Part shown: positions 30,747-46,440 of the stretch, piece by piece | Numbering within the stretch: the stretch's first letter is position 1 | How the letters are laid out: each line of letters starts with the position of its first letter | Assembly (NCBI RefSeq): GCF_030317145.1 | Contig: NZ_JASZYE010000006.1 | Location: 1-64,000 of the forward strand | Source of the DNA: Variovorax flavidus | Lineage (GTDB): Bacteria; Pseudomonadota; Gammaproteobacteria; Burkholderiales; Burkholderiaceae_C | Reading direction: 5' to 3' | Length of the DNA stretch: 64,000 bases | The notes under the pieces: generated by a model | What the model was told of the DNA's origin: nothing | What the model saw: only the letters and a program-made list of their open reading frames with translations | Databases searched by the model: none | Made by a program: the position numbers and the translations under genes

Positions 30747-32406
30747 TAAGCACCTCAGGCGACTCACCGCCATGGACCAACGCCTTCGTGCCCACGCGCA
30801 CCAGCAGCGGAGCTGGGATCGAGCGACCGCAGATCAGCGCCTCCCCTGTCGAGAGTCCAGGGAGCTGGTCGAGATCGGCAGCACTGACCATGTCGGATGT
30901 CTTCGCGATGAAGCGTTGGTCATCAGGATTCTTCAGGCGCATCGCGATCAACGTATTGCACTGAGAGGTCACGTCAGGGTCGAGCTTCGATGGTCGCTGG
31001 CTCACGACGGCAAAGCCGACACCGAACTTGCGTCCCTCGCCCGCGATCTTTTTGATGATGCGGTGGCTCACTGCCGACTCACCGGCCGGTGCGAAGCTGT
31101 GCGCTTCCTCGTAGACCAGAAAGCACGGGCGGATTCGATCTGTCTTGCTCGAGGCGGCACGAAGAATCTCGCTGGAGATGAGCGCAGTGATGACCTGCTT
31201 CGCGGTGTCACTGAGCCCCTGAAGATCGACGATGACCAGGCGGCCTTTGCGATCGGTCGGCCTGCCGACCATCTCGTAGACGTCAGTGGCTGCGGCAAGT
31301 CCGGAGTGGTAGAAGCTCTGGGCCTCCTGCAGGACGCGCGACAGCTTCATCGAGGCCACCGCCGCGCTGCGACCGTTCAGTGCTGAGGCTTCGGATTGGC
31401 TCAACTCGTCCCACTGCCGCACGTCATCGATGCCGTCGCCTAGGTAGTGCCGTAGCCGGTTGATGTCTCTCGGCATTGCGGGCTCGTGAGCAATCCAGAA
31501 ACGGATAGCCACGTCCAAGACCCGCTGTTGCGGCTCGGTCAGGCCGGGAAGGATCTCGCTGAGATCATCCATCTCGAAGTGATCGAACTGCAACGCAAGT
31601 TCCTGGTTTGCTCCTGCGTACTTTTGCCGGAAAGAAGGGTTCTGTGGGCTGTAGATGGTGATGCCCGCTCCGGCCTCTCGAAGCCGCGTGAACGCTTCGC
31701 GGATGGCAGGCAGTGCGGCGCGATCGCGCTGGTCGTCTAGCTCGTCAGGGTGCTCGTTGAAGTGCATCTCTCCGCCGGCGAGCGCGCGTCCGTATTCACC
31801 GTGCGGGTCGAAGACAACGACTGTGCCGTTGTTGATGGCGACGAGTCGCTCGATGATGCGGCCCACGGCGTATGACTTGCCCGAGCCGGTCATTGCAAGA
31901 ACCGCAAGGTGCTCCGTTACCAGCCGGTTGACATCGAGAAACACGGGCACTGCTGAGGCACCACTTTCGTACCCAACGAGATTTCCAATGTGCAGGCTCG
32001 AGTGTTCCTGAAACTGGTAGAAGGCGCTGAGAAACTGGAAGTCCACCGGCTCCACGTGAGAACCGGGGTCGAGCGCACGCCGCGGCATCTTGATCTGCCC
32101 GCTGTCCGCTTCCCGAAAGCCGATCGCCTCCAGCTTGCCGATGATCTGCTCGCCGGTGACCTGCGCACCGGGCAGCAGCTCGAGTTCCGTTACAGCCTGG
32201 CCGAGCCCGGAGTTGTAGAGGACATTGCTACGGCTGATGCTCACGATGCGCGCCAAGACGTCGGTCTGTGCGTCGCCTTCCTGCTCGCGATGCCGAACGC
32301 GTACGAATTCGCCGCGCCGGCCCGCAAAGGACGAGTTCAGCACCATTGTCAGGTTCGTCGGGTCGCCGGTGTTGCCGACCAAGCGGCCGAGGATATGGGT
32401 CGTCAT
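30721..32406 (-). CDS. HerA-like ATPase/translocase, defence operon gene 10
   Basis: A 561-residue FtsK/HerA-superfamily motor. Residues 1-110 resemble the HAS-barrel domain (MTTHILGRLVGNTGDP, EFVRVRH). The Walker A TGSGKS is at 173-178 and the Walker B/HerA motif IRPCFLVYEEAHSFAP is near residue 445. HerA forms hexamers that translocate DNA and partner with NurA nucleases, whose likely gene lies directly upstream. AAGGAG precedes the ATG at 32,406. The 12-bp gap from the NurA-like gene supports co-translation. Confidence 0.88.
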   Translation of the reverse strand: MTTHILGRLVGNTGDPTNLTMVLNSSFAGRRGEFVRVRHREQEGDAQTDVLARIVSISRSNVLYNSGLGQAVTELELLPGAQVTGEQIIGKLEAIGFREADSGQIKMPRRALDPGSHVEPVDFQFLSAFYQFQEHSSLHIGNLVGYESGASAVPVFLDVNRLVTEHLAVLAMTGSGKSYAVGRIIERLVAINNGTVVVFDPHGEYGRALAGGEMHFNEHPDELDDQRDRAALPAIREAFTRLREAGAGITIYSPQNPSFRQKYAGANQELALQFDHFEMDDLSEILPGLTEPQQRVLDVAIRFWIAHEPAMPRDINRLRHYLGDGIDDVRQWDELSQSEASALNGRSAAVASMKLSRVLQEAQSFYHSGLAAATDVYEMVGRPTDRKGRLVIVDLQGLSDTAKQVITALISSEILRAASSKTDRIRPCFLVYEEAHSFAPAGESAVSHRIIKKIAGEGRKFGVGFAVVSQRPSKLDPDVTSQCNTLIAMRLKNPDDQRFIAKTSDMVSAADLDQLPGLSTGEALICGRSIPAPLLVRVGTKALVHGGESPEVLNVWGRFGG

Positions 32407-32418
32407 GTTTTGTTCTCC

Positions 32419-33567
32419 TTATGTCCCAAGGTCGAAGTCCGAGAGCCATACGCTCTCGATTTCACGCTGCTTGAGCTCACGCGCGACGCTTCGGCTGTAG
32501 TGCTCGAGGAATGGAGCAAGAGCGTTCAACTCTCGTTCAGCCAGTTGGACTGGCAGCGGGGCCGACGCCGTGCCCCCGACGGCCGTCAACGCCATCGTGA
32601 GGCCGACAACGTCGTCAATCACTTCGGCAGTCCACGCAGGAGCGTCGCCAACGAGTTGCATCAAGCGCGGTTCGGTCGTCTGGCCAGCACGGAAGTGCAG
32701 GCCAATCACCCCAAGGTCAACGACCGCTCCCGGCTCCATCCGCGGGGCGTGCACATTCATCCGGAACGCGGCCGTTCTCGTGAAGCTACCGAGGATCCCA
32801 TGCACGAACCTGCGCTCGCCAACACCAAGGACCGCCTCACGCATCCCGTCCAGTGCTGCGAGGTGCTCGCGTGTGATCCCCTCGGTAGGCAGTAGCTGGC
32901 TTCGCCCTTCGGGAAGCCGCAGATCCTGGTGCGCGGACTGGACAATGGCTCCGAACCGCTGAGAAGCGAGCCCGACGATGACGGGGCCACTCGGACTCCA
33001 TGGGAACAGACGTTCACGGTGCTTGGCCCAGAAAGCCTGGACGGTCGCGAGCGTGGCCTCGTATGCCGCCCGATATCCCTCGTCGCCTGCGCGATCGGAC
33101 GGGGGCACCATGCTTCGGTCCATCACCAGCGGCGTGTCGAGGAAGATCATCCGTGCGCGTTCTTCGACAACCGCTCGATCGGCCAGTTCATAGGCTTGCC
33201 GCATGGCGGCCAGCGCGAGGCGCTTCGACTGGTTCTCGAAATTGATGTCGTCGATCTCGCAGGCACTGTCCTGGCCTGCGGTCGAGACGGCGTTGTGCTC
33301 GACGAGCAGATCGCAACGGGCCGCCGCTGCACCGTACAGGAAGCCGCCGATGGTCTTGGTCGTCGCGGCGCGCGTCGCAATGCCGGACACCCGGGCATTG
33401 ATCGGACTTGGGCGCTCAACCGAGCGCACGAGACCGGCCTTCACGAACAGCGGCGCGACGCGTTCGAGGTCGCGAATTTGCTTCAACAGTCGCCCCGCGG
33501 TGCCAGGCAGATGGATCTGCGACTGGATCGCAAGCGTCTGCGCAAGTGTTGGGTTGGTGGAAGTCAT
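32419..33567 (-). CDS. NurA-like nuclease domain protein, defence operon gene 9
   Basis: A 382-residue protein that I assign to the NurA family from its position next to HerA and its layout. The N terminus is helical. The central region has RCDLLVEHNAV and then ARMIFLDTPLVMDRSMVPP, similar to the Asp-containing strands of NurA nucleases; a later RMNVHAPRMEPGAVVDLGVIGLHFR resembles the C-terminal block. The start at 33,567 overlaps the previous stop by 4 bp. HerA-NurA pairs resect or degrade DNA, so this would be the main effector candidate. The family call is moderate. Confidence 0.65.
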   Translation of the reverse strand: MTSTNPTLAQTLAIQSQIHLPGTAGRLLKQIRDLERVAPLFVKAGLVRSVERPSPINARVSGIATRAATTKTIGGFLYGAAAARCDLLVEHNAVSTAGQDSACEIDDINFENQSKRLALAAMRQAYELADRAVVEERARMIFLDTPLVMDRSMVPPSDRAGDEGYRAAYEATLATVQAFWAKHRERLFPWSPSGPVIVGLASQRFGAIVQSAHQDLRLPEGRSQLLPTEGITREHLAALDGMREAVLGVGERRFVHGILGSFTRTAAFRMNVHAPRMEPGAVVDLGVIGLHFRAGQTTEPRLMQLVGDAPAWTAEVIDDVVGLTMALTAVGGTASAPLPVQLAERELNALAPFLEHYSRSVARELKQREIESVWLSDFDLGT

Positions 33568-34382
33568 GGGGTAGATACCTTGCGAAGCGCGCCGACATAG
33601 CACGCATAGGGGCTCTCCATCACGAGCGCGACGGCCTCCACCGTCGGCTTGGCGCCAACGAGATGGCCACGTCCGCGCAGTTCGGTCATCAGTTGCCTTG
33701 CACGATCCTGGCCGAAGCGGAAGATCGACGACGATTGAAGCGCGGCAATCGCCTCCTCCTCGTCGGAAAACGATTGACCCAGTAGAAAGACGAGCATGCC
33801 GAAGTGGTCGGGCGTCAGCGCGCGCTCGGTGGGTCTTTCGACCGGCTTGCTCTCGCCTGCAAGTGCAGACAGGGCATCGATCCAACCCGCAAGCTGGTCA
33901 GCAGCATCGAGAACTGTCAGCGACCACAGCGGCAACGATGTCACAGCGAAGAGCCCGGCGGCGGGGTGCAGGCGATAGGTCCCCAGGCATACACTCAGGT
34001 CTCCCCACGTGGCTCCCGACATCGGCGGTGTCTGGAGCTTCCCGTCGAGCCGATGAGTGACCTCCGTCGCGAGTACTCTGGCGAGACCTTCGCCACCGCG
34101 CGCAGAACCGTCGATGCGCTCGGCCCTCCAGGACACCGGTACATCACACACACCGGTCTCGAACGGTGGGATCAGCAGCAGCAGGTGCCCAGGGGTACGG
34201 GTCCACTCCAACAGGCGCGCCTGTTCGGCTCTGTCCGCACCCTGAAACGATTCACCAAAGGCCATGACCACCGCGCGGCCTTCGGGCAGCACCGAAGCAG
34301 CGTCTGCTCCGAGTGCCTCTCGCAGGATTCGCCCTCGTCGATGCGAGGCGAGTGCGCCTTGAAGGATGACAAGCACCGTCAC
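33564..34382 (-). CDS. Unknown protein, defence operon gene 8
   Basis: A 272-residue cytoplasmic protein of unknown family. It begins MTVLVILQGALASHRRGRILREALG, giving a Rossmann-like first strand and helix, and has a hydrophobic LLLLIPPFE strand near residue 75. The C-terminal third (HFGMLVFLLGQSFSDEEEAIAALQSSSIFRFGQDRARQLMTELRGRGHL) looks like a winged-helix or helical adaptor. It overlaps the big ATPase gene and the NurA-like gene by 4 bp each, so it is translated with both and may link them. Confidence 0.6.
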   Translation of the reverse strand: MTVLVILQGALASHRRGRILREALGADAASVLPEGRAVVMAFGESFQGADRAEQARLLEWTRTPGHLLLLIPPFETGVCDVPVSWRAERIDGSARGGEGLARVLATEVTHRLDGKLQTPPMSGATWGDLSVCLGTYRLHPAAGLFAVTSLPLWSLTVLDAADQLAGWIDALSALAGESKPVERPTERALTPDHFGMLVFLLGQSFSDEEEAIAALQSSSIFRFGQDRARQLMTELRGRGHLVGAKPTVEAVALVMESPYACYVGALRKVSTP

Positions 34383-37300
34383 GGCAATACCCCAAGCCGG
34401 TAGGTGCGCTGCACGAGATTGCGCTTCACCAGAGCGTCGGCCTCCTGCGGCTCGAGCACAGGGTCACGCCCCGCATCGAGCGCGTGCACTATGGCACACC
34501 AGCGATCAAAGCTGAGGCCAGTGCCAGCGAGCATCCTGTAACCGGACGCTGTGTTGTCCTGAATCCGGCTGCTCACCAGCTTCTGCCCCTCGCAAAGCGC
34601 ACCCGCCTCCTCGACATCCTTCAGGCTGAGGGCTGCGGGCGCCGCGGCGCCCGTGGCCAAAGCGAGCGCTTGGAGCCCGCGGTGTGCCTTCTGCAGCTCG
34701 GCGCTCTCGAGCAGCTTCTTGCGGTACTCCGCGATCGCGTTTTCCACGGACATGACGTGTCCGATCAACAGCGTGAGGGCCGACCTCGGCTCTTCGAGCA
34801 GGTCACGTGCGCGCGACATCAGCGGCTGGAAATTGCCCAGCCGCGCAGGCGCATCAAACTCGGAGCGAAGTCGCTCGACCTCCTCGCTGCGAGCTTCGTC
34901 GAGTGCACTATCAATGAGTGCCGGGCGGCCCTGAAGCTTGTCGAGGGTGAGCACAGCCTTAGGGTAGTGAAAGTCGCCAGGCGCACCCTTGAGCACCGTC
35001 TGGAGCGTGCCGATGCGCGTGGTCGCGCCCCCAAGCTCGGTTCGCAGCTTCTCGTACACCGACTTCAGGTCGCGGAAGGTGCTCACCACAGGCCCTTCGC
35101 ACTGAGCCAGGGGAGACTCGGTCCAAGTCGCGAGGTCGACACCCACCTCGCGCGCCAAGTTCTCCAGCTGAACTGTGGCCTCAGCCACCCTCAGGTCGCG
35201 AAGGTTCTGACGCAAGGTTCCAGGCTCGGTGGCCTGTACCAGTTCGGTTGCACCTGGAACGGCACCCGGCGCGACAGCGCCATCGAGGATATGACCGATC
35301 TTCTCCAGCGACAACGTGAACAGCGCGATCGGAAAACCTTGCAGCACGCTCACCTCCTGGCGCATCTCTTCAGCCAGCGACACCGTCCGCGCGCGAGTCC
35401 GCTTCTCGGCCTTGCGAACGAAGCCCACCAACAGCGAGGCACGTCGGACACGCTGCCAAAGCGGCACATCGTCCAGACTGAAGTCGAGGGTCTTGACGTT
35501 GGCGTCCTGCTGCAGCGCGACGAAGTCCTCGCGGCGGTAGACCCAGTTGACGTTGGCAATGATGCGGCGCCGACGTTGCGCGGACGCGCGGAAGTTGTCA
35601 GCCGAGGCGGGCTGCGTCTCGGAAACGTCGAGTGAGTCAAGGTCGGTTGTGCTGTCTTTGAGCTTCTGGCGGGCCATCATGGTCTTGGTCCCGGGCAAAC
35701 CTGCGCTCTCGGGCGCGAACAGCTGCTTGACAAGACCCGCCCCAAAGACCAACTCCATCTCGGCCACGAGCGTCGGATAGTCCTTCTTCAGCCAGCTGTC
35801 TGCTTCCTGCACGGCCCCGCGCAGCTCGGAGCGCGGAATCGCCGTGTAGACGTCGGCGCTCTTGGCCCCCGGCTGCGGTTGGGCGAAGCCCAGTTCGCGC
35901 AGGACCGACATCCACTCGAAGTAGGTGTCCTTGGGCTTTACGCCTTCCCAGGTGTAGCCCCAGAACCACTCACGTTCGGCACGCGGGAACGTCCAATCGC
36001 CCCTCAGCAGAAGCCGGATCATCTCAATCAGGAACGGCGGGAACTGCGCTTCGGCGGCGTCGTCCACCCGAGAGAACAGGCCGGCGCGCTCGCTGTCGAC
36101 ATAGCCCGCCGCACGTGCCTTGGGCGTGACACCCAGTTTGGCCAGAATCGCCTTCAAGTCCTCGACATCGACGCCCGACTTGTCATCGAGCTTCGCCAAC
36201 GTAGCCGGTGCCGCCTTGTCGACGGCCAGAATGCGCCAGGCCTTGATCAGCAGATCCTGCTCCGTGTCCTTCAGCTTGCCCGACGAGCGCAGCGGCCACG
36301 CGATGCGCCCCAACTCGTTGAGCTGCTGCCGGAATCGCCCCACTTCGTCAGTGAACGGACGCACCAGGCTCTGCAGCCGGTTGTTGAATGCAGTGGTAAA
36401 GCCGTGGCCGTCGAGGGCGAAGCCGAGGCTCGCCTGTGTTGGCACGCCAATCTGGTGAAGGACGTGCTCCTCCGTCGAGCTGAGCTGATACAGCAGCAGG
36501 TAGCCTTTGGCGTCCTTGAGCGTGATGCCCGACGGTTTGGCCATGCGATCGACGAGGGCCCGCGACGATGTGAACGCGACCACGGGGGTACGGCCCTCGT
36601 CGTCGAACTGCGTGTTCGCTGCCTTGCAGAGGCGCTCGAGCTCCTCGTCGTTCTTCACCCAGGCGAAGAGCACTCGACCTTTAGGGTGCAGCTTCAGACC
36701 ATCGAAAGTGACCAGCCCGCCGGGTTGCTTGCCCTTGGCAAGCGGCGAGGTCGCAATGACCGTCAACGATTCATCACGAATGCCGGTAGGCGCGGCGTCA
36801 TAGCCCCAGTGCTGGTCGATGACCCGCATGGCGCCCACGAGGATCTGCAGCGCGCGCTGGCGTTCGGTCTGCGTGCGCAGCGTCGAAAGCGCTTTTTCGT
36901 GCGCCGCGTTCTGGTCCGGGTCGCGGAAGATCAGCGAGGTCTGCCCCTGCTTGCGGTGCCGCAAATCCAGACGCGCGATCATTTCCACGCTGGGACCCAC
37001 GTGCGTCGCAGTATCGGCCGGCAGATCTTCGGCGCCGAGGAAGCGGCGCCACAGCGCCCGCGCCGCGTCTTCGGCCGCGGCGTGCGGGGACAACAGCGAC
37101 ACGAGATGCACGAAGTCCGACTGTCGCAGCGGGACCACGAGCGTGTGTTTGCCATCGGTGCGGCGCTGGCCCTTGGTCTCGTGTATGGCATAGGTGCCGA
37201 GGTTCGAGAGCAGTTGGCGCAGATCGAGCGGCTGATCGACACCCCCGAGCCGCCACACACCGCGGTCCCGCGTGAACTTCGACGCACGCAGCGCTTCGGC

Positions 37301-38620
37301 CGCTTCGAGTTCATCCCACTCGACCCGGCGGAACAGCGTTGCGATCGGCTCGTCGTACTCGTTGCAAGCTGCCAGCAGGGCGGCGCGCTTCTCTGGCGCG
37401 ATGCTCTCCAACGCCACAGGCAGCTGGCCGTAAAGCAAGTCGCGCGCGGCCGTCGTCTGCGCCTTGTCCATCTTCAGCATGTCGAGCGCGTGGTGGTCGA
37501 GCACATGCTGCTGCACCCGCCCTGACACCCGCACCAGTTCATCGAAGAGCGCGCCGACGGTGGGCGCGTCCTTCTCACCGCGCGCACGTTTGTCGCGCAG
37601 GCGTTCGTCGATGCTGGCCATCACGACGTTGAACCAGCCGAAGTTGCCCGCGCTCATGGCGTAAGCCGCCTCGACGAGCCCTTGCGGGTAAGTCTCGGCG
37701 AGGCGCCCGTCACGTTCCAGTGTCTGCACGAAGTCGCTGACGTCAGAAAAAGCGTTCGATGACAGTTCGGCCAGCTCGAACCGGCGCGCGGTCGACTGGA
37801 TCTCGCGCAATTCGTCGCCGATCGCCGGGGAACACAGCGCCACGTACCGAAGCCAAGGCAACTTGCGGCGCGGGTCTTCCTCCTTGATGGCCTTGCCCAT
37901 CAACTTGATGGCCCGCCCGTCGAGGTGCTTGATGTCGGTCGAGTCCAGGCCGAAGGTTGCAGACTCCGCGGCCGTCTCCAGCTCGTCCAGAACCACCAGA
38001 ACGTACTTGATGCCGAGCGACTGCAAGTAGGCATATGCCGCCTGGCACAGCCTCGTGGCCAGCGTCGGGTCTTCGTAGAGCGCCTGGTCGGAGTGGTTCT
38101 GCGCGGTCTCCAGCGCGTCGGCCAGCTTCTTGGGGTCGAAGCCCGCCACCGTCAGCCGGTCACTCGCCTCCTTCGCGATCTGCCCCTGGATAGAGCCATC
38201 GAATGCGCTGCGCGCCAGCGGCAACAGCGCCTTGTACAGGCCGTAGGCAAACCAGTTGTCGACGTTGTTGTAGTCGTTGGCCACCTGGCTGTAGCGGATG
38301 TACAAGCCCAGGTACTGGCTGCGGTCCTTGTCGTCGTGGAACAGTTGCGCCTTCTGCAGCGAGCCGTCGTCGGCGCGCACCCACCAACCGCGCGAGGTGT
38401 CATTGATCTGCGCCACCAACTCGTAGCCCAGGCGCGACTTGCCCTTGCCCCACTCGCCGATGGCCGCGAAGACGTGCGCGAACTTCTCCGCCTCGTCATC
38501 GACGAGGTGGATGAAGTGGCGGAACGCCTCGAAGAAGCGGCCCTGGCCCACGACAGGGTGTGTCAGGGGGTAGCTCGAGACGCCGGTGGCGGCCCATTGA
38601 TGTTTCGCCTTGTCGATCAC
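34379..38620 (-). CDS. Very large P-loop ATPase (1413 aa), defence operon gene 7
   Basis: A 1413-residue cytoplasmic ATPase. The Walker A motif GEWGKGKS is at 55-62 and the Walker B VLVVLDELE at 207-215, so the ATPase domain is N-terminal. The remaining ~1000 residues are helical with no identifiable enzyme motif. BREX BrxC and other giant defence ATPases have this architecture, but I cannot confirm homology. The start is a GTG at 38,620 with AGGAG upstream, overlapping the previous stop as GTGA. It probably acts as the target-sensing or assembly motor. Confidence 0.8.
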   Translation of the reverse strand: MIDKAKHQWAATGVSSYPLTHPVVGQGRFFEAFRHFIHLVDDEAEKFAHVFAAIGEWGKGKSRLGYELVAQINDTSRGWWVRADDGSLQKAQLFHDDKDRSQYLGLYIRYSQVANDYNNVDNWFAYGLYKALLPLARSAFDGSIQGQIAKEASDRLTVAGFDPKKLADALETAQNHSDQALYEDPTLATRLCQAAYAYLQSLGIKYVLVVLDELETAAESATFGLDSTDIKHLDGRAIKLMGKAIKEEDPRRKLPWLRYVALCSPAIGDELREIQSTARRFELAELSSNAFSDVSDFVQTLERDGRLAETYPQGLVEAAYAMSAGNFGWFNVVMASIDERLRDKRARGEKDAPTVGALFDELVRVSGRVQQHVLDHHALDMLKMDKAQTTAARDLLYGQLPVALESIAPEKRAALLAACNEYDEPIATLFRRVEWDELEAAEALRASKFTRDRGVWRLGGVDQPLDLRQLLSNLGTYAIHETKGQRRTDGKHTLVVPLRQSDFVHLVSLLSPHAAAEDAARALWRRFLGAEDLPADTATHVGPSVEMIARLDLRHRKQGQTSLIFRDPDQNAAHEKALSTLRTQTERQRALQILVGAMRVIDQHWGYDAAPTGIRDESLTVIATSPLAKGKQPGGLVTFDGLKLHPKGRVLFAWVKNDEELERLCKAANTQFDDEGRTPVVAFTSSRALVDRMAKPSGITLKDAKGYLLLYQLSSTEEHVLHQIGVPTQASLGFALDGHGFTTAFNNRLQSLVRPFTDEVGRFRQQLNELGRIAWPLRSSGKLKDTEQDLLIKAWRILAVDKAAPATLAKLDDKSGVDVEDLKAILAKLGVTPKARAAGYVDSERAGLFSRVDDAAEAQFPPFLIEMIRLLLRGDWTFPRAEREWFWGYTWEGVKPKDTYFEWMSVLRELGFAQPQPGAKSADVYTAIPRSELRGAVQEADSWLKKDYPTLVAEMELVFGAGLVKQLFAPESAGLPGTKTMMARQKLKDSTTDLDSLDVSETQPASADNFRASAQRRRRIIANVNWVYRREDFVALQQDANVKTLDFSLDDVPLWQRVRRASLLVGFVRKAEKRTRARTVSLAEEMRQEVSVLQGFPIALFTLSLEKIGHILDGAVAPGAVPGATELVQATEPGTLRQNLRDLRVAEATVQLENLAREVGVDLATWTESPLAQCEGPVVSTFRDLKSVYEKLRTELGGATTRIGTLQTVLKGAPGDFHYPKAVLTLDKLQGRPALIDSALDEARSEEVERLRSEFDAPARLGNFQPLMSRARDLLEEPRSALTLLIGHVMSVENAIAEYRKKLLESAELQKAHRGLQALALATGAAAPAALSLKDVEEAGALCEGQKLVSSRIQDNTASGYRMLAGTGLSFDRWCAIVHALDAGRDPVLEPQEADALVKRNLVQRTYRLGVLP

Positions 38621-39690
38621 CGTGTCAGCTCCTGTCTTGTCTCGAGCACGCGCCATGCGTTGCGGAAGATGTCGTCGAATTGGTCGTGCACGACCCACCG
38701 GACGAGCTTGCGGCCGGGGTCACCAAACAGGCCGCGGCCATGGCGCGCCTGGCCCGGCTCGGCCGCGAGAAGCTCCAGGGCGCCGCGCCGCTGGGCCTGT
38801 TCGACGAGTGCATCCATCCAGCGCGCGAAGGCACCTTGGTCCGGGCTGGCCCCGAAGGCGGCGAGCAGCTCGCGCAGCACCGGCTCCGCGGCCACGAAGC
38901 CCAGCACATCGGTATGACTGCGGATCAGTTCGGTGAGGACCTGCGCCGGGCTCGACCGGCCTAGCAGGTCTGCTTGCAGCGCACCAGGCAAATTCAGCAA
39001 GCCGGTGCGCGTGAGCCAGCCCACCGATTCGAGCAGCATCAGCGGCGCAGTCAGCGGCGTGAGCGAGAGGTCGTCCTTGCCCTTCTTGCGGTGGAAGACC
39101 TCGGGCGCATAGCCCAGCGCCTGGCACTGCGCGCGCGCGAGCCACCGGCCCGCCGCCAGTTGCTCCAGCCCTGCAAACCAGCTCTCGGGTTCAGCGTTCG
39201 CTTGCAGCAACAGCGAGATACCGGCCTTCAAGCCCGTGCGACTGCTGCTCACCTCGGCCCAATTCAGCAGCATCCAGTCGCGGTGCGTCAGACGCAGGAG
39301 TAGAAGGCGCAACCATGGGCTCTCGCGTACGAGGTAGGTCGACAGCGACTCCAGGCCGCGCGACGGGTTCTCTTTCCAATGACGCAACAGAACCTGCGCC
39401 TCGTCGCTCAGGCCCCAATGGCCGGCAGCGTCGCCCTCGATGAGCCCCACACCTGGCAGCCGAACCAGGCCCGCACGGTGGAACACGCCGAAGAGACCCG
39501 CTGCCCCGCGCCACGCGATCGTACCCAGCAGGCACCGCTCGGCCACCGTGCGCGGTGTGCCGGTCTGCGGGGTCCGGAGAGCGGCCGTGGCGATGACCTC
39601 GAGCGCCCGAAACCACGCTTCGGGGTCGCTGGCCTCGGTCCAGAACGCGGGGCGCTCGAGGTGAAGAATCGGCACCTGAGCGTGCTTCAT
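38617..39690 (-). CDS. Unknown protein, defence operon gene 6
   Basis: A 357-residue protein of unknown family. It is mainly helical and rich in Leu, Trp and Arg (HRDWMLLNWAEVSSSR, ESPWLRLLLLRLTHRDW) without signal peptide or membrane segments. Winged-helix-like stretches are possible (GLFGVFHRAGLVRLPGVG, LESVGWLTRTGLLNLP). It overlaps genes 5 and 7 by 4 bp each. Translation with the giant ATPase suggests a stable partner of it. Confidence 0.6.
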   Translation of the reverse strand: MKHAQVPILHLERPAFWTEASDPEAWFRALEVIATAALRTPQTGTPRTVAERCLLGTIAWRGAAGLFGVFHRAGLVRLPGVGLIEGDAAGHWGLSDEAQVLLRHWKENPSRGLESLSTYLVRESPWLRLLLLRLTHRDWMLLNWAEVSSSRTGLKAGISLLLQANAEPESWFAGLEQLAAGRWLARAQCQALGYAPEVFHRKKGKDDLSLTPLTAPLMLLESVGWLTRTGLLNLPGALQADLLGRSSPAQVLTELIRSHTDVLGFVAAEPVLRELLAAFGASPDQGAFARWMDALVEQAQRRGALELLAAEPGQARHGRGLFGDPGRKLVRWVVHDQFDDIFRNAWRVLETRQELTR

Positions 39691-40877
39691 GCCGCCAGCC
39701 CCTCGCCCTGACGGGCTCCCGCCCGGGCGATCCGCTCACGCGCCCAGGCTTCCGCAGTGCGGCGGATGGCGGCCGTCACTGGCGCACCGAGCCGGTAGAA
39801 AGCCCGGCTGCCCAGCGCGCGGTAGCAGGCATCAGAAAACGACGGGTGAATGACGTACGCGGGACGCCGTGCACCCGAGCCGTGCTCAAAGCGCCAGACG
39901 TCGCGCTGCTGCACCGCTTCGACGACTGATGCCAGCGGGTCGTCAAGCAGGCTGGCGGTCACGCGGTGCGCGAGCACCATCACACCGAGCTGTGCGAGGG
40001 TGCGCTGGACGAGTTCGCCCAACGAACCGCAGCGAATCTCCTCGCCGCTGGGCAGCGTCACGGCCACTTCGACACGGGGCGGAGTTTGGAACAGTGACAC
40101 GTGCGCGGGCTCGAGCTCAAAGGCGATGCCGCCCGACACACGCTCGGCTTCCCACGCCTCCTTGGTGAAGACCATCTGGGCCAACAGGAAGGCCCAGGGA
40201 TGGGACAGCGCCCAGCGCATGGCGTCGCCGTCCTCGCCGCGACCATCCAGCGCGCCGCTCAACACCGCGGTGCTCGATGCTGTGTCACTCACCGCGGGCA
40301 GGCGCAGCAGCCGGCCGGGGCGCCAGCCGGTCGAAGGATTCTCGGCCGCGATCTCGGGCAGCACTGGCGGCACCTGCGCGCCACCGCGAAGAGCGGCGGT
40401 AGCGGCCAGCACGCGAAGAAGCACAGGCGCTGCGGCCGCCTCGTGTGCCGGGGCCGGCAAGGTTGCCCGCTCCAGGTCGGCATAGGGTGTTGGCGCCAGT
40501 GAAGGCGCTGTGACCGCCACGAGTTCGGCCGCCGCGGAGCCGGCGTTCGTCACGGCATCGGCTAGGCCCGCCACGTCGCCCCGCTCGCCCCCCTCGGCCA
40601 ACCGCGCACGCATGACACGCAGCCAGGCGTCGCGCACCTCGGGCAGGAGCGAGAACAAGGCTGGCACGGTTTCGGTGGAACTGGGCAGCCGGTCCGCGAG
40701 CGTCACGACCGAAGGGGTCGCGACGACGATGTCGCCGCGCTGCGTCCACAGGCCCGACGCTTCCGGTCCGTTCAGTGACTGCAGCAGCGACGAGGACACC
40801 TCGCCCTGCGCAAGCAGGTTACGGACCTCTTCAACAGCACGCAGCAGCGTGCGGGCCGAGAGCGCCGAGACCGTCAT
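39687..40877 (-). CDS. Unknown protein, defence operon gene 5
   Basis: A 396-residue protein with no recognised domain. The N terminus is helical (LLRAVEEVRNLLAQGEVSSSLLQSLNG); the middle is Ala/Pro-rich; the C-terminal third has mixed strands and helices ending in a basic helix (AIRRTAEAWARERIARAGARQG). No catalytic motif is obvious. It overlaps the HsdS-like gene upstream and gene 6 downstream by 4 bp each, so it belongs to the same translationally coupled block. Confidence 0.6.
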   Translation of the reverse strand: MTVSALSARTLLRAVEEVRNLLAQGEVSSSLLQSLNGPEASGLWTQRGDIVVATPSVVTLADRLPSSTETVPALFSLLPEVRDAWLRVMRARLAEGGERGDVAGLADAVTNAGSAAAELVAVTAPSLAPTPYADLERATLPAPAHEAAAAPVLLRVLAATAALRGGAQVPPVLPEIAAENPSTGWRPGRLLRLPAVSDTASSTAVLSGALDGRGEDGDAMRWALSHPWAFLLAQMVFTKEAWEAERVSGGIAFELEPAHVSLFQTPPRVEVAVTLPSGEEIRCGSLGELVQRTLAQLGVMVLAHRVTASLLDDPLASVVEAVQQRDVWRFEHGSGARRPAYVIHPSFSDACYRALGSRAFYRLGAPVTAAIRRTAEAWARERIARAGARQGEGLAA

Positions 40878-42382
40878 GCGGCTTCTTCCTCCGACGCGTT
40901 GATGAGTGCGCAGAGCGCATCGACGTCGGCGATGAGCGCTTTGGCGCCTGGCGCGTCACTCTGCCGGAGTGCCTTCAGGATCTCGCAGTCGGCGTTGCGG
41001 TCGCCGACCTCAAGTGCCTTCTGCGCGGCGACGAGATCGGCTTCGACGACGCGGCCCTCGATCAGATGCTCGACCAATGCGGTGGCGGCTTCCGTCAGCT
41101 CCGCGCTCGCGAAATAGCAGGCCTGCGCCATTCGAAGCAAGGCGCCCAGCGCCTGCTGATCGTCGCGCCAAGGAACAAGAAGCTCGAGGACATCCTCGCG
41201 ATCGACGCGCGGATGCGTGGAGCCGGTTGCAATGGGGTTGAGCTGACGAACGCTCGACTCGAGCTTCAGAACGCCGTAGAGAAACCAGCCATCAACGCCT
41301 TCCTTCGGACGGACCAGAAACAGTTCCGTGGATCCGATGCCCCCAGCGAAGGCCTGCGGGATGTAGGTGACCTTGTTGAGGTAGGGGCGCAGGCGGGAGA
41401 GTGCTGGCCCTTCGCGGAGAAGGCGCGCCATTCCCGCAACAGCTTCAGCCTCTGCCGTCGATGGCTTGAGCACACAGGTCACCGAGTCGATGGCGTCCAG
41501 CCCGACGTAGACGGCTCGCGGCGAGAAGCTGTCGGTGGTCGGGCTCTCGACATGTCCCAACGTATCCAGCGCCCGGCCGCCTGCCGCTTGAACCGCAGCA
41601 CGCACTGCGCGGCGGTCAGGCGTATGGACGCCAGGGTTTAGGTTTCGCCCAAGTTCGCCGCTCTTCACTCGGCTAGTCTTGCCCGCCGTCGGCGAAGTCT
41701 CAGGAACCGCCACGGCCATCTTTTCACGGAAGCAGGCCTCAAGCCGACGTGCGCGTTGTCGCAGCCTTTCGGCCTGGCGAACTTTGTCGCCGATGTAGCG
41801 CTGCGCGGCCAGATCCGGCGTGAAAACCGGAACCTGCCTGATGTGGTCGTTGACGAGGTTGAGTTGGCCGGTGCTGCCGCTGATGCCCTGTTCCAGGGCC
41901 CTTTCTCCCCACCAGCTTGATAGGAACGCGCAGACGAATGCCGCATCCGCTGCTGAGGCGACGGAAAGTTTGGCCAGGTGCTGGTTCGTCAACGGCTGGT
42001 CGGTGCCAAAGTAGATTCCGACCCGGCCGACGCTGCCGGCCCCAGTCACATTCAAAACCAGATCCTCCCGCTGGACTTGGTAGTGCGGCCAGCGCCGCGC
42101 GGCGGCAGGTTCAGCGAAGTCGACATCACCCACGTCGACAACCATTCCAAGCACATTCTTCGTCTTGAGGCACGGATGACCAACGGCCGCGAACTTCGGA
42201 TGTGGCCCTGGCCCGATGGCATTGCTGCAGATCGCTGAGAGGGGCCGCCAGGGCAAGCTTCGGATCTTCTGCAGGGCGTTAGTGACATCGGGGCGGTACG
42301 ACTGCGCAGACCAAAGGACGCCCAGGTCTTGGACGCCAATACGGTTGATATGGTGCGTTTCGCGGAGTGAGTCGACAGCCAT
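40874..42382 (-). CDS. HsdS-like DNA specificity protein (second), defence operon gene 4
   Basis: A 502-residue protein resembling the specificity subunit of type I restriction-modification enzymes. It has two half-repeats: an N-terminal recognition domain ending in the helix AAQRYIGDKVRQAERLRQRARRLEACF, and a second domain ending in QQALGALLRMAQACYFASAELTEAA. The phrase GSTGQLNLVNDHIRQVPVFTPD is typical of HsdS conserved regions. The ATG at 42,382 overlaps the methyltransferase stop by one base, so both are made together. It probably directs the methyltransferase to its site. Confidence 0.8.
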   Translation of the reverse strand: MAVDSLRETHHINRIGVQDLGVLWSAQSYRPDVTNALQKIRSLPWRPLSAICSNAIGPGPHPKFAAVGHPCLKTKNVLGMVVDVGDVDFAEPAAARRWPHYQVQREDLVLNVTGAGSVGRVGIYFGTDQPLTNQHLAKLSVASAADAAFVCAFLSSWWGERALEQGISGSTGQLNLVNDHIRQVPVFTPDLAAQRYIGDKVRQAERLRQRARRLEACFREKMAVAVPETSPTAGKTSRVKSGELGRNLNPGVHTPDRRAVRAAVQAAGGRALDTLGHVESPTTDSFSPRAVYVGLDAIDSVTCVLKPSTAEAEAVAGMARLLREGPALSRLRPYLNKVTYIPQAFAGGIGSTELFLVRPKEGVDGWFLYGVLKLESSVRQLNPIATGSTHPRVDREDVLELLVPWRDDQQALGALLRMAQACYFASAELTEAATALVEHLIEGRVVEADLVAAQKALEVGDRNADCEILKALRQSDAPGAKALIADVDALCALINASEEEAA

Positions 42383-44448
42383 CACTCCCCCCGCACGTAA
42401 GCGCCGACGATGGCGGCCATGTCGTTGGGCACACCAGCGCTGTAATCCTCGACGTTGTTCTTCACCACGTACCCGAGCGTCTCGGCAACGGCCATGAACA
42501 CGTCGGTCTGCGGCGCATCCTGGAACCTCTCCGGGTCGTCCTTGCGCGCGCGGCGCTTCTGCAGGTAGAGCACGCTGGTCTTGGCGCCCGTTCCCGAGAG
42601 TTTGAAGGCGTCGGCCGGCAAGCTGATGACGGCCTTCACGATGGCCTTGCCACCATGGAACGCGCCGGTGGCTTCGTCCTTGGTGCCCATGATGTACTCG
42701 CGCACATAGCGATCGCCCGAGTTGCACAGCACGCCGTCGGGCAGCACGATCAGCAGCCGCCCGCCCGGCTTCAGCAGTTGCAGGCAGCGGTCGATGAACA
42801 GCACCGCGGGGTCGGTGTTGGCAGAAGCCTCCTTCCAGATGCCCTTGCTGTTGGGCGAGCCGCCCATCGCCAGACCGGTGACCGTAGGCGAGTAGTCGTT
42901 GCCGCCGCCGCGGCCAGTTCGTGGCGTCAGGTCCGAGCGGTAGGTCTTCAGCATCAGCTCCATTGCCTCCTCGTGCGCCCGCTTGGCCTCTTCCTGGCCC
43001 TTGTTGAACTTGGGCGTGCCGAAGGGCGGGTTCGTGCAGATCAGGTCGAAGCTGCCGGGCTCCAGTTGCGGGCTGGTGAGCGAGTTCTGCGTATAGAAGA
43101 TGCGGGCCTTGGGCGCACCCAGCAACGCCATGTTCACGCGGGCCAACATCACCATCTGCGGTGACGCGTCCGCGCCGACGAAGCTGTGTTCGCACATTTC
43201 GGCGAACAGCTTCTTGCGCGCCTCGTCGGTGGCCGTGGCCTTGCCGCCGATCTCGTCGAGCGCGCGGCGCAGGTGACTCAGCGCCACCGACGGAAAGCCG
43301 GCGCTGCCGCAGGTGGGGTCGCAGAATCGAAAAGCGGGGCGGCCCTGGCCGTCGCGAGCGACGAGGTTGGCGGCGTCTTCGGTACTCTCCTTGATGTCGT
43401 GGAAGGCCAGCGCCAGCATGGCCTGCTTCACCGGTGCCGGCGTAAGGTAGATGCCCAGCCCGCCCTTGGACTCGAAATTGGCGCGCAGGAAAACGTCGAA
43501 GGCGCGGCCGAGTACGTCGGCCGCGATGTCTGCCAGCGTCCCTTCCTTCTTGACGACGTTGTTCTGGTTGTCGGTGACGACGCCGAGGTCCTGGATCAGC
43601 GCGAGCACCGCCGCGTAGTTGCTGGGCTGCTCCAGGCGCAAGTGGGCGTTTTTGTCAAAGATGGGGTGCTTCTCGCCGGCATCGTCGGTGACGATGTAGT
43701 CCGGGTGCTGCTTGAAGTGCTCGAACGCGGACTGGATCTCGGCCACCGCCGTCGCGCCGTGCGCCCGGACGTACGTGGTCTGGAACACATCCCCCAGGTC
43801 AAGCTTCCGGTTCTTGTGCTCGAAGATCAGCGCGCCCTTGTGGTGCAGGCGGAACGACTCCAGGAAAAGCAGCTTGGCGACTTCTTCGATGATGTCGTTC
43901 TTGCCGTTGACCTTGTCTTTGTGTGTCTGGTAGATGCGCTCGTGCAAAGCGTTGAAGCCCTTCATCAGGCGGTCGTACATGCGCATCGACCAGCGGTAGG
44001 TTGGGTCGGCCTTGATGCGCTTGTACTCGCCGATCTCGACCAGGCTGGGCAGCTTGTCGATCTGGTGCGGCGGATACGCGAGGTCAAAGAACGACTCGAG
44101 CTTGCCTTCGGCGTCGCGCACGATGGCGAACTGCGGGTACTGGTCGGCGGGGGTCTCGGGCGGGGGCAGCGTGTACGAGAGCACCTGCACGTCGTCAGCA
44201 TTGCTGCGGCTCCAAGCTCCGGCTGGCAGCACCAGCGCCAGCACGCGCGGCGTTTCCACGCCCTGATGGCGTCCCCACACCATGGCCGCGGACATGCCGG
44301 GTTCGTTGGCCTTCAGGTCGAGGGTTTGGTCGAAGCGGGCGCCGGCCAGCTTGCGCACCATCTCCTTAAGGATGTTGCTCTCGTTCGTCGCGATGGCGAT
44401 TGCGTCATTCGTCGTGCTCTCGGTCGTGGCCTTCTTGGGGCGTGCCAT
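42382..44448 (-). CDS. HsdM-like N6-adenine DNA methyltransferase, defence operon gene 3
   Basis: A 688-residue DNA methyltransferase that probably adds N6-methyl groups to adenine to mark self DNA. The AdoMet motif DPTCGSAGF is at 377-385 and the catalytic NPPF at 473-476. A helical N-terminal domain of about 350 residues precedes it, as in HsdM. The start has AGGAGG at an ideal distance. Unlike BREX PglX, it is paired with separate specificity proteins. No HsdR gene is present in the window. Confidence 0.92.
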   Translation of the reverse strand: MARPKKATTESTTNDAIAIATNESNILKEMVRKLAGARFDQTLDLKANEPGMSAAMVWGRHQGVETPRVLALVLPAGAWSRSNADDVQVLSYTLPPPETPADQYPQFAIVRDAEGKLESFFDLAYPPHQIDKLPSLVEIGEYKRIKADPTYRWSMRMYDRLMKGFNALHERIYQTHKDKVNGKNDIIEEVAKLLFLESFRLHHKGALIFEHKNRKLDLGDVFQTTYVRAHGATAVAEIQSAFEHFKQHPDYIVTDDAGEKHPIFDKNAHLRLEQPSNYAAVLALIQDLGVVTDNQNNVVKKEGTLADIAADVLGRAFDVFLRANFESKGGLGIYLTPAPVKQAMLALAFHDIKESTEDAANLVARDGQGRPAFRFCDPTCGSAGFPSVALSHLRRALDEIGGKATATDEARKKLFAEMCEHSFVGADASPQMVMLARVNMALLGAPKARIFYTQNSLTSPQLEPGSFDLICTNPPFGTPKFNKGQEEAKRAHEEAMELMLKTYRSDLTPRTGRGGGNDYSPTVTGLAMGGSPNSKGIWKEASANTDPAVLFIDRCLQLLKPGGRLLIVLPDGVLCNSGDRYVREYIMGTKDEATGAFHGGKAIVKAVISLPADAFKLSGTGAKTSVLYLQKRRARKDDPERFQDAPQTDVFMAVAETLGYVVKNNVEDYSAGVPNDMAAIVGAYVRGE

Positions 44449-44475
44449 GGGTGTGTCCTCCTGAGGTTCTGGTTA

Positions 44476-44856
44476 CTAGCGGGCGATGCGGATCAGGTTC
44501 GGGCCGAAGACTTCGAGCCCGGCGGTGCGGTGCACGATGGCGAGCACCTGCTCGTCGGTCGTGACAAGGTGTTGGGGAAGGCGGGCGCGGACGTGCACAG
44601 CCGGCACAGGGCGGCCCCCGAACGAACGCACGGCGTCGGCGATTGCGGCGGCGAGTTCGTCGTCAGCGCTCGCGGCCTGGGCCTGGAAGGCGCCCGAGCC
44701 GCCACGCTGCACGCCAGGTGCGCAGAGCAGGAAGAGTTCGAGCTGGTCGCGGGTCCAAGCGCTGCCCGAGAGGCGGACGCGTTCGTACAGCTCGTCGAAC
44801 GTGCGCGGCTTCTGTTTCAGCGCGCTGATCAGGTCTTCGGCGTGGCGGGGGGTCAT
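44476..44856 (-). CDS. Small winged-helix-like protein, defence operon gene 2
   Basis: A 126-residue protein. The first half (HAEDLISALKQKPRTFDELYERVRLSGSAWTRDQLELFLLCAPGVQRGG) has the helix-turn-helix-strand layout of a winged helix. The second half forms another small alpha/beta unit ending HRTAGLEVFGPNLIRIAR. It could repress the operon through the paired palindromes upstream, or act as a DNA-recognition subunit. It overlaps gene 1 by 4 bp and precedes the methyltransferase by 27 bp. Confidence 0.6.
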   Translation of the reverse strand: MTPRHAEDLISALKQKPRTFDELYERVRLSGSAWTRDQLELFLLCAPGVQRGGSGAFQAQAASADDELAAAIADAVRSFGGRPVPAVHVRARLPQHLVTTDEQVLAIVHRTAGLEVFGPNLIRIAR

Positions 44857-46256
44857 GGACGGCTCTCCTGTTCAGCCGCGGTAGTCGCCGCGAACGGCTG
44901 ATGGACGGCAGTGAAGACGGTCATCAACTCGCTCATCAACACCGACCATTGACGATCGAGTGCGCGACGCTGTGCGTGATAGCGGTCAACGGCGCGCTGC
45001 CAGCGATCGCGCAACTCCCGCGGCGGCACCGGCACCCGCAGCGAACGCAAGGCCTCGGGCGTGACGAACTGCTGAACGGTGCCGACGGCAAGTCGGGCGG
45101 CCTGCGAGCACAGTGGTTCGGTGGCGAGCAAGAGTGCCCATGCGGCCGGCGTTTCGCGAAAGCGCATTCGGGCCCAGCCGTCGACCGGGAAGGTGTCGGG
45201 AGGGACATCGTCGTCGACATAAGCCACGCGAAAGCTGCTGCCTAGTGTGGACAGCAGCACCTCGCCCGGTACCAGCGGCTTCGCGAGAGTGCGGCTGGGC
45301 ATGATCTCCTCGCCCGGAGCCTCTTCTGCCAGTGAGACGAAAAGGTCGCCGCCGACGTCGCGCAGGCGCAGTGCCCTGGCCCCTTCGCGGGCGTCGGTCA
45401 GTCGTGCCCGGTCATCGGACCAGGCAAGGTCGCCGACCGACACCCATCCGTGGTCTTGTTCAAGGGCCACCTGCTCGGCGCGTAGGGCCGTAGCCTCGGG
45501 CAGCCAGCTTTCGTTCGTGACAGCCTCGCGGGGGAAGAAAGCGCCGCCGGCAAGATGGAATGCGTGCGCCGCGGCGGCGTCCACCGTGTCAGCTGCCTCG
45601 CCGCGGGCGAGGTTCAGCGCCTCGCCTGCCATCGTCTTCTCATCGAGGATGTCGCGCAGCTTGGCAGACAGGCCCTCCAGCTGCGGTGGTGTTGGCGCCA
45701 CGCGGAGCGACTCCAGCGAGCCGATGCCGACGCGCTGCAGCACGCCAGACTCGACGAGCAGGAGTTGCTGGTAGCCTGGCTGGTTCAGGCAGAGCGCAAC
45801 CCACGCCGCGTCCGCGCGGGTCAGGCCACGAACGATCAGGGTGTTGCCGTCCACAGCGTGCCGCTTGGCGGCGGTGGAAACGAAAGCGGCACGTACCGGC
45901 GCGTGCTTGTTTACCACCACGTCGTCGGGCTGTACGCACCATCGCCCCGTCATCTGCGGTGCTGTCCAGTGCTGCAGCCCGAGGCTCAGGCACAGCCGGT
46001 CGATGTTGCCTTGCCTGTAGACGGGTGTGGTGGCGGCGCGGGCGTCGTAGGCCACCGCCCCCAAGGTTTCGCTGACGCGCCAGCCTTCTAAAACCTGAGC
46101 ACCCCGCTCGCCAATGGCCCACCCTTCGAGGCCTGCTCGCAGCGCAGCCGCGGCGCTGCCAACGAAGTAGGCTGGTGACCACCCGGGGGCCGACGCCAGC
46201 AGCGCAGGCACTGCGAATATTGATTGAACGTGTGAACTCACAAGCACATTGTACAT
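44853..46256 (-). CDS. HsdS-like DNA specificity protein (first), defence operon gene 1
   Basis: A protein of up to 467 residues with the two-repeat layout of HsdS. The first recognition domain ends near SLESLRVAPTPPQLEGLSAKLRDILDEK, and the second near LRSLRVPVPPRELRDRWQRAVDRYHAQRRALDRQWSVLMSEL; both pair a recognition region with a long spacer helix. The ATG at 46,256 overlaps the predicted -10 box, so the real start may be a downstream GTG (46,241 or 46,211). It differs clearly from the other HsdS-like protein, so the system may use two specificities. Confidence 0.75.
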   Translation of the reverse strand: MYNVLVSSHVQSIFAVPALLASAPGWSPAYFVGSAAAALRAGLEGWAIGERGAQVLEGWRVSETLGAVAYDARAATTPVYRQGNIDRLCLSLGLQHWTAPQMTGRWCVQPDDVVVNKHAPVRAAFVSTAAKRHAVDGNTLIVRGLTRADAAWVALCLNQPGYQQLLLVESGVLQRVGIGSLESLRVAPTPPQLEGLSAKLRDILDEKTMAGEALNLARGEAADTVDAAAAHAFHLAGGAFFPREAVTNESWLPEATALRAEQVALEQDHGWVSVGDLAWSDDRARLTDAREGARALRLRDVGGDLFVSLAEEAPGEEIMPSRTLAKPLVPGEVLLSTLGSSFRVAYVDDDVPPDTFPVDGWARMRFRETPAAWALLLATEPLCSQAARLAVGTVQQFVTPEALRSLRVPVPPRELRDRWQRAVDRYHAQRRALDRQWSVLMSELMTVFTAVHQPFAATTAAEQESRP

Positions 46257-46295
46257 TCCATGCGGATAAACGCAATATGCCTTTGTGAGTTCACA
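46231..46295 (-). promoter_or_regulatory. Defence operon promoter flanked by two identical palindromic operators
   Basis: On the minus strand, -35 TTGCGT (46,275-46,270) and -10 TACAAT (46,253-46,248) are 16 bp apart, a good sigma-70-type promoter. A perfect 12-bp palindrome, TGTGAGTTCACA read on the plus strand, lies just upstream of -35 at 46,284-46,295. Its partner TGTGAACTCACA lies just downstream of -10 at 46,231-46,242. A dimeric repressor bound at both sites would shut the promoter. The two sites are 42 bp apart. Confidence 0.7.
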
Positions 46296-46440
46296 TGTGG
46301 CGAATTAGGCTGGCCGGCGATCTGCAAAGTCCGACGGGATGGGTCCTAGCAGTCTGGGCGACATCCCAGCATCGCGGCGACGGCACAAGTGGAAGCGTGT
46401 GTGCGGAACAGTGTCACGCTGGTAGGAGATGGAGCACTGA

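What the first reader, a model, noticed from the sequence alone, without database searches (positions are those of the whole stretch)
46231..46295. Operon promoter framed by a matched pair of palindromic operators
TGTGAACTCACA and its reverse complement TGTGAGTTCACA lie immediately outside the -10 and -35 boxes of a 16-bp spaced promoter. The two sites are perfect palindromes, each with a two-base centre and equal arms. Two sites on either side of a promoter are the classic looping or steric repression layout. The small winged-helix-like gene 2 is a natural candidate regulator.
Basis: partly seen in the sequence, partly recalled or inferred. Interest (0 to 1): 0.65.

Follow-up and report, generated by a model that had tools for sequence, protein, structure and literature searches.

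The report
Paired operators of a defence operon
Two matching DNA sites flank the promoter of a 12-gene operon that is probably anti-viral, and the same layout precedes the same operon in other, distant bacteria, so it is very likely a dedicated switch for that operon, although the protein that binds it is not yet known.

Summary
In detail: TGTGAACTCACA and TGTGAGTTCACA frame a minus-strand promoter. The palindrome alone is no rarer than chance in the genome (3 found, about 3 expected), but the close pair is far beyond chance and conserved: all four relatives whose operon start is available (Methylobacterium, Roseomonas, a Planctomycetota MAG, an IMG/VR contig) carry it at the same promoter. 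Comparison changes three things. (1) The conserved unit is not the palindrome (imperfect in 5 of 10 sites) but an asymmetric bipartite element, ACRTG-N5-TCACA, in inverted pair. (2) Gene 1 starts at the GTG inside the downstream site, 6 nt after the -10 box, so the mRNA is probably leaderless and that site covers +1. (3) Spacing is 52, 53 or 64 bp, near whole helical turns. The operon resembles MADS but reaches no curated MADS cut-off. Autorepression by an operon product is the best explanation. The binder is undecided: gene 2 (predicted tandem winged helix) or gene 1, an HsdS-like protein unusually conserved where specificity subunits normally vary, with a target in Type I format. No binding was tested.

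The parts
46284..46298 (-). Site A (upstream operator): ACATG-TGAAC-TCACA; contains the palindrome 46284-46295; its centre is at -48.5 from the G of the GTG start
   Evidence: present in 5 of 5 operons with a readable 5' end
46228..46242 (+). Site B (downstream operator, inverted relative to A): ACGTG-TGAAC-TCACA on the + strand; contains the palindrome 46231-46242, the predicted +1 and the GTG start codon
46270..46275 (-). -35 box TTGCGT (weak; TTGACA in three relatives, TTGACG in one)
46248..46253 (-). -10 box TACAAT, 6 nt before the GTG start
46239..46241 (-). GTG start codon of gene 1, inside site B (replaces the mechanical ATG start at 46256)
   Evidence: the five homologues share M-x-x-H-V from this GTG; in L006 and L010 it is the only ATG/GTG/TTG after the upstream in-frame stop (read by eye)
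44853..46241 (-). gene 1: HsdS (Type I specificity)-like protein, 462 aa, candidate operator-binding protein
44476..44856 (-). gene 2: 126-aa predicted tandem winged-helix protein, candidate repressor
42382..44448 (-). N6-adenine DNA methyltransferase (M, Type I-like), 83-85% identical in the four close relatives
40874..42385 (-). second HsdS-like subunit (S2), variable between the operons
39687..40877 (-). gene 5, no family, conserved in the relatives
38617..39690 (-). gene 6, no family, conserved in the relatives
34379..38620 (-). gene 7: large protein with a Walker-A-like stretch (GKGKS, my reading), perhaps an ATPase; no family hit; start chosen from the alignment
33564..34382 (-). gene 8, no family above cut-off
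32419..33573 (-). gene 9, no family above cut-off; start is my choice
30721..32406 (-). HerA-like helicase (91.6-94.6% identical in three relatives)
30150..30773 (-). gene 11, no family
28693..30153 (-). serine/threonine protein kinase, best PADLOC match mad6; last gene of the conserved run

Best explanation
The two sites are a dedicated operator pair for autogenous repression of a 12-gene, MADS-like operon (gene 1 to kinase, 46241-28693, minus strand). An operon-encoded protein binds the bipartite element ACRTG-N5-TCACA at site A (upstream of -35) and at site B (over +1 and the GTG start codon of gene 1), on the same face of the helix, and excludes RNA polymerase. When the protein is scarce, or is drawn away, the promoter opens and an mRNA starting at or next to the GTG is made. 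Shown here: the sites, their conservation as a pair, their spacing, and the start codon inside site B. Inferred: leaderless start, repression rather than activation, autogenous control, the defence role. Undecided: the binder; my estimate is gene 2 about 0.40, gene 1 (alone or with M) about 0.35, another factor about 0.25.
For: The pair is present in 5 of 5 operons with a readable 5' end: window, L004, L005, L006, L010. Over the ten sites, 9 of the 10 specified positions of ACRTG-N5-TCACA are invariant and the tenth is A in 2 and G in 8, while 12 of 16 flanking positions carry under 0.5 bit. Centre spacing is 53, 53, 52, 52 and 64 bp, about 5, 5, 5, 5 and 6 turns. In the six records searched the pair occurs once in each of the five whose operon start is held and not in that of L007, whose contig ends before it; in a phylum sample it occurs in 1 of 398 genomes, the window's own. 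No regulator gene is shared upstream: among ORFs of 100 aa or more the only match between loci is one weak pair (26% over 160 aa) in different places and strands, so an operon product is the likely binder. No Shine-Dalgarno-like stretch is seen by eye before the GTG in 5 of 5. The twelve genes are collinear in L004, L005 and L006.
Against: No binding, expression or transcript-start data exist here. Five operons are few, and the element was read off them, so its presence there is partly circular. Part of site B is coding (His-Val of gene 1), so some of its conservation could be protein constraint; site A has no such excuse. The palindrome's genome-wide count is what chance predicts and the bipartite element also occurs singly elsewhere: 8 of 10, 7 of 9, 1 of 3 and 2 of 4 matches in the four genomes are outside the operon. 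The window's promoter was not called by the scanner. Site A near -48 could serve activation. Gene 2 has a mixed pI (5.7-9.2 over six homologues) and no match to any regulator family.
Confidence: 0.7

Rival explanations
1. Gene 1, an HsdS paralogue with fixed specificity, alone or with the methyltransferase M, is the operator-binding protein. The sites are its Type I-like targets, so occupancy or methylation of the promoter reports the level of the methylation machinery.
For: The 5-N5-5 format fits two recognition domains reading half-sites 5-9 bp apart; taking the one conserved A of the first half (A1) and the one T of the second (T11), as in the table of PMC12707154, leaves 9 bp between, the Type IB value. 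Gene 1 matches Type I specificity models. Mean pairwise identity over five operons (25-residue blocks): gene 1 residues 1-200 0.57-0.78, 201-250 0.38-0.41, 251-325 0.46-0.64, 326-425 0.70-0.83, 426-462 0.29-0.48; S2 is 0.17-0.41 in all blocks except 201-225 (0.62) and 426-500 (0.52-0.66). So S2 looks like an ordinary variable specificity subunit and gene 1 nearly the reverse. Type II systems are reported to use methylation of promoter sites for control (PMC3874152, passages). In the distant relative L008 a gene-1-like S follows a methylase-like protein with VPPI in place of NPPF.
Against: No precedent was seen in the listings for an S subunit as repressor. Gene 1 profile matches are weak (best E 1.5e-05) and its AlphaFold model is poor (pLDDT 48), so which blocks are recognition domains is my reading; one of them (251-325) is only moderately conserved. 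Conservation could mean a fixed genomic target or a structural role instead.
Confidence: 0.33
2. Gene 2, the 126-aa tandem winged-helix protein, is the repressor; its two domains read the two half-sites, which lie about one helical turn apart.
For: Confident model with two winged-helix units; each unit aligns with winged-helix domains, many of them transcription factors such as TtgV, AhrC/ArgR and Zur. Present with the sites in 5 of 5 operons and next to M also in L007.
Against: The best Foldseek matches are mostly RNA- or protein-binding winged helices with low TM-scores, and pTM 0.54 leaves the arrangement of the two domains open; mixed charge; an exposed position of the first recognition helix varies (R/V/L/A at 36) although the DNA site does not. 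Gene 2 could be a structural subunit.
Confidence: 0.4
3. A host global regulator (CRP/FNR-like or a GntR-type factor) uses the sites.
For: TGTGA/TCACA arms resemble CRP half-sites (recalled).
Against: The gap is 2 bp, not the 6 of CRP (recalled consensus); only 3 exact copies in 6.6 Mb, about the chance number, and 1, 0, 0 and 0 in the genomes of L004, L005, L006 and L007, which leaves little room for a global regulon; the conserved unit is asymmetric; by record titles the hosts belong to different phyla, yet the sites go with the operon.
Confidence: 0.08
4. Not regulatory: repeats of a mobile element, an RNA hairpin, or chance.
For: The two sites form an inverted repeat; transposase-like debris (recalled resemblance) lies upstream at 46651-46971.
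Against: Same position on either side of the promoter in five operons with unrelated flanks; spacing changes by about a whole turn; site A lies upstream of the predicted +1, so the pair is not transcribed from this promoter; 0 of 3000 simulations.
Confidence: 0.03

Closest known systems
RptR, repressor of a Type I restriction-modification/DarTG2 island of enteropathogenic E. coli (PMC12255303; abstract and passages seen)
   Same: Small operon-encoded protein, repeated short palindromic sites at the promoter, two sites needed, conserved with Type I systems
   Different: RptR is the first gene, 9 kDa, all-helical, and binds TAGCTA direct repeats over the -10; here the sites are 15-bp, bipartite, inverted, 52-64 bp apart around the promoter and over the start codon
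BrxR / CapW WYL-domain regulators of BREX, CBASS and defence islands (PMC9122589, PMC9122601, PMC9122588; search listing only)
   Same: Dedicated transcription control of a defence operon
   Different: Pfam finds no WYL domain in the twelve operon proteins and no regulator gene is shared upstream
Methyltransferase autorepression and promoter-site methylation in Type II systems (CfrBI, LlaDII; PMC3874152, passages seen)
   Same: A modification-system protein acting at its own promoter
   Different: Type II enzymes with an N-terminal HTH or a methylated target; here a Type I-like operon with two S-like proteins
MADS (methylation-associated defence system; the 2024 paper is not held, seen only as a reference in PMC12904381)
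   Same: mad2-, mad5-, mad6- and mad8-like genes
   Different: NCBIfam scores are far under the curated cut-offs and no mad1, mad3, mad4 or mad7 match appears in the listed hits

Membership tests
MADS defence system | Genes pass curated MADS models | tested here: not met
   NCBIfam MADS2 126.4 bits against 720, MADS5 75.2 (S2) against 400, MADS6 122.5 against 460
MADS defence system | Methylase, S subunit, kinase and HerA-like genes together | tested here: met
   PADLOC mad2 1.8e-21, mad5 1.2e-11, mad8 1.7e-26, mad6 9.4e-44; mad6 is the kinase's best model, for the other three genes Type I or HerA models score better
MADS defence system | mad1, mad3, mad4, mad7 present | tested here: inconclusive
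   No such match is listed for 12 operon proteins, but the PADLOC lists for M, S2 and the kinase were cut at 25 rows, and that these models are in the libraries is presumed
Type I restriction-modification | HsdM and HsdS | tested here: met
   MTase_I E 9.4e-254 for M; Specificity_I E 1.7e-79 for S2
Type I restriction-modification | HsdR motor nuclease in the operon | tested here: not met
   No HsdR among the listed hits of the operon proteins (some PADLOC lists cut at 25 rows)
RptR-type regulation | TAGCTA-type repeats at the promoter | tested here: not met
   46228-46298 holds no TAGCTA, TAGATA, TATCTA or TATATA (read)
RptR-type regulation | RptR homologue | not tested
   no sequence comparison made
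CRP-type operator | TGTGA-N6-TCACA | tested here: not met
   Gap is 2 bp; CRP consensus recalled
Type I-like bipartite target | Two half-sites 5-9 bp apart, A in the first and T in the second | tested here: met
   ACRTG-N5-TCACA, 9 bp between A1 and T11 (table in PMC12707154)
Type I-like bipartite target | Adenine methylated at the site | not testable with these tools
   needs methylome data
Winged-helix DNA-binding protein (gene 2) | Winged-helix fold | tested here: met
   Predicted model and structural alignments, best Z 9.8 (1.9 A over 63 residues); a prediction, not a solved structure
Winged-helix DNA-binding protein (gene 2) | Sequence-specific binding to the sites | not testable with these tools
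   needs gel shift

The most novel reading that the evidence does not exclude
The operon is controlled by its own Type I-like recognition machinery: gene 1 is an HsdS paralogue frozen to one bipartite target, ACRTG-N5-TCACA, which forms a close pair only at its own promoter and start codon, so that a specificity subunit (with or without M) has become a transcriptional repressor, possibly methylation-sensitive, in a defence system whose other specificity subunit keeps changing.
Probability: 0.3. Interest if true: 0.75.

Novelty: new variant of a known kind. Interest (0 to 1): 0.5.

Why it matters
How large defence operons are kept quiet is known for only a few systems. This gives a small, conserved, testable switch for an uncharacterised MADS-like operon found in distant bacteria, with two named candidate binders. 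If gene 1 is the binder, it would show a restriction specificity subunit turned into a repressor and would couple control to DNA recognition.

Tried and rejected
More homologues: a genome-contig scan with gene 1 found none, with M five loci; viral scans with M, the gene 1 alignment and the M alignment found only one record. Plasmids gave nothing for genes 1, 2 and 7 and only distant methylases for M (44 records, all under 60% identity, at most 31% in the 15 shown). Gene 2 in 399 family genomes gave itself and two marginal matches (E 8e-4 and 9e-4, not followed); gene 7 gave only itself in 369 class genomes; the gene 2 alignment gave only the known genome among 250 of another order.

The viral scan for the pair pattern gave three stretches: one is the L010 record; L012 and L013 have no operon gene by tblastn and are taken as chance.

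L007 (68% M) could not be used: its contig ends about 170 bases upstream of gene 2, apparently inside gene 1. L008 (39% M) lacks both the palindrome and the bipartite element over the 19.5 kb held; it has two 25-nt direct repeats 65 bp apart around a promoter-like stretch: one example, not used as proof.

The third exact genome site (C12:915935) lies 23 bp upstream of an unrelated 234-aa ORF; with about 3.2 sites expected in the genome I treat it as chance.

A motif-I difference in the window's methylase (CGSAG) looked like damage but L010 has the same; dropped. The gene 1 model was too poor to use. No solved relative was found for the gene 1 and gene 7 alignments at E 0.01; the gene 2 alignment at E 1 gave three hits that look irrelevant (best E 0.48). 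Paper searches listed no paper on this operator; the listings were capped and the MADS paper is not held.

Full report
What is there. With one mismatch allowed, 27 of 100 shuffles of the window have two or more sites. The pairing is what stands out: none of 3000 simulated windows has two exact sites within 100 bp. The promoter is weak by consensus and is supported mainly by the relatives.

The operon. Downstream on the minus strand run twelve closely packed genes: gene 1 (HsdS-like), gene 2, an N6 methyltransferase, a second HsdS-like protein, genes 5 and 6, a large protein with a Walker-A-like stretch, genes 8 and 9, a HerA-like helicase, gene 11 and a serine/threonine kinase. PADLOC and NCBIfam show resemblance to MADS genes 2, 5, 6 and (PADLOC) 8, but every NCBIfam MADS score is far below its curated cut-off and no mad1, mad3, mad4 or mad7 match is listed (three PADLOC lists were cut at 25 rows). 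I call it MADS-like, not MADS. A defence role is inferred from gene content; nothing here tests it.

Relatives. The methyltransferase led to four close relatives (83-85% identical) in records titled Methylobacterium oxalidis (L004), a Planctomycetota MAG (L005) and Roseomonas (L006) and in an IMG/VR contig (L010), plus two more distant ones, L007 and L008. All twelve genes are collinear in L004, L005 and L006; L010 is cut by its contig end in gene 6. I did not check the MAG for mis-binning, so the Planctomycetota label is the record's own.

The sites are conserved, but not as a palindrome. Each of the four relatives has a pair of sites in the same places. Lining up all ten sites gives ACRTG-N5-TCACA: nine of the ten specified positions are invariant and the R is A in 2 and G in 8; the five middle positions carry 0.6-1.3 bits, and 12 of 16 flanking positions carry less than 0.5 bit (raw values, ten sequences). 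The arms of the palindrome are perfect in five of the ten sites (both window sites, L004_A, both L010 sites) and imperfect in the other five (L004_B, L005_A, L005_B, L006_A, L006_B). The window's perfect palindromes are thus one case of a broader asymmetric element. The pattern was read off these ten sites, so finding it at them is not independent. What is independent is that both copies agree with each other in every operon while the flanks do not, and that the pair is absent from 397 other genomes of the phylum sample. Counted from the GTG without gaps, 10 of 15 columns of site B are invariant against 1 of 59 from -60 to -2; that stretch includes site A, which falls out of register there because the spacing differs. 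Single matches to the element do occur elsewhere: 10, 9, 3 and 4 in the genomes of the window, L004, L005 and L006, two of each in the operon.

Start codon inside site B. The five gene 1 homologues share a start M-x-x-H-V read from the GTG in T-GTG-A of site B. In L006 and L010 this GTG is the only ATG, GTG or TTG after the upstream in-frame stop (read). A fair -10 box ends 6 nt before it in the window (TACAAT) and L010 (TATATT); in L004, L005 and L006 the -10 box is poor, although the -35 box is good (by eye). No ribosome-binding-site-like stretch precedes the GTG. So +1 probably falls on or beside the G and the mRNA is leaderless; this is inference. Site B would then cover +1 and the start codon, the position expected of a repressor site. 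Site A is centred at -48.5, -48.5, -59.5, -47.5 and -47.5 in the window, L004, L005, L006 and L010.

Spacing. Centre to centre 53, 53, 64, 52 and 52 bp in the same order. At 10.5 bp per turn these are about 5, 5, 6, 5 and 5 turns, so both sites face nearly the same side. This fits co-operative binding or simply polymerase occlusion from both edges.

Who binds? No regulator gene is shared upstream: among ORFs of 100 aa or more the only match between loci was one weak pair (26% over 160 aa) in different positions and strands. An operon product is therefore likely. Gene 2 is predicted with good local confidence (pLDDT 87.4, pTM 0.54) as two winged-helix units; structural matches are to many winged-helix proteins, DNA-, RNA- and protein-binding, and Pfam, PADLOC, NCBIfam and PHROGs assign no family. 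Gene 1 is HsdS-like by weak but repeated matches. Over the same five operons, S2 behaves as an ordinary specificity subunit: 0.17-0.41 identity in all 25-residue blocks except 201-225 (0.62) and 426-500 (0.52-0.66). Gene 1 is nearly the reverse: 0.57-0.78 in 1-200, 0.38-0.41 in 201-250, 0.46-0.64 in 251-325, 0.70-0.83 in 326-425 and 0.29-0.48 beyond. Caveats: domain limits are my reading, L007 was left out of the S2 profile, and S2 of L005 was aligned from an over-long mechanical start. A protein of fixed specificity and a fixed 5-N5-5 target in the same operon are suggestive; the implied A-to-T spacing, 9 bp, is the Type IB value (PMC12707154, section 22 read).

A distant parallel. In L008 (Actinacidiphila alni, 39% methylase) a methylase-like protein with VPPI in place of NPPF precedes a gene-1-like S. 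In front of them two 25-nt direct repeats lie 65 bp apart around a TTGACT-containing stretch, and their shared sequence occurs only there in that genome. It suggests that paired sites of other sequence may serve related systems, but it is one case, found by looking at two stretches.

Known comparisons. RptR (PMC12255303; abstract and passages) is the nearest described case: a small repressor of a Type I island with repeated sites. WYL regulators are another (listing only). Promoter-site methylation control exists in Type II systems (PMC3874152, passages). The paper searches named under Tried and rejected listed no report of this operator.

Verdict. Real, conserved and dedicated to this operon as a pair; a new variant of a known kind (autoregulated defence operon). 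The binder, repression and the leaderless start remain to be tested.

Noticed in passing
window 28693-46241 (-): A 12-gene operon that resembles MADS but reaches no curated MADS cut-off, and whose genes 2, 5, 6, 7, 8, 9 and 11 have no family above cut-off; same gene order in Methylobacterium, Roseomonas and a Planctomycetota MAG, HerA-like protein 91.6-94.6% identical.
   Followed up: partly
window 44853-46241 and 40874-42385: Two HsdS-like genes with nearly opposite conservation: gene 1 conserved over most of its length except a linker and the end, S2 variable except in two short regions.
   Followed up: partly
L008 4696-4785: Two 25-nt direct repeats 65 bp apart around a promoter-like stretch in front of a distant relative of the operon; their shared sequence is unique in that genome.
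   Followed up: partly
L008 4790-6076: Methylase-like protein with a degenerate catalytic motif (VPPI for NPPF) followed by an S-like gene: a possible inactive M-S pair.
   Followed up: no
window 46651-46971 (-): ORF that looks like a remnant of an IS66-type transposase (recalled resemblance, not searched) upstream of the operon.
   Followed up: no
L010 (IMG/VR contig, 25.9 kb): The operon start sits on a contig classed as viral, so it may travel on phage-like or other mobile DNA.
   Followed up: no
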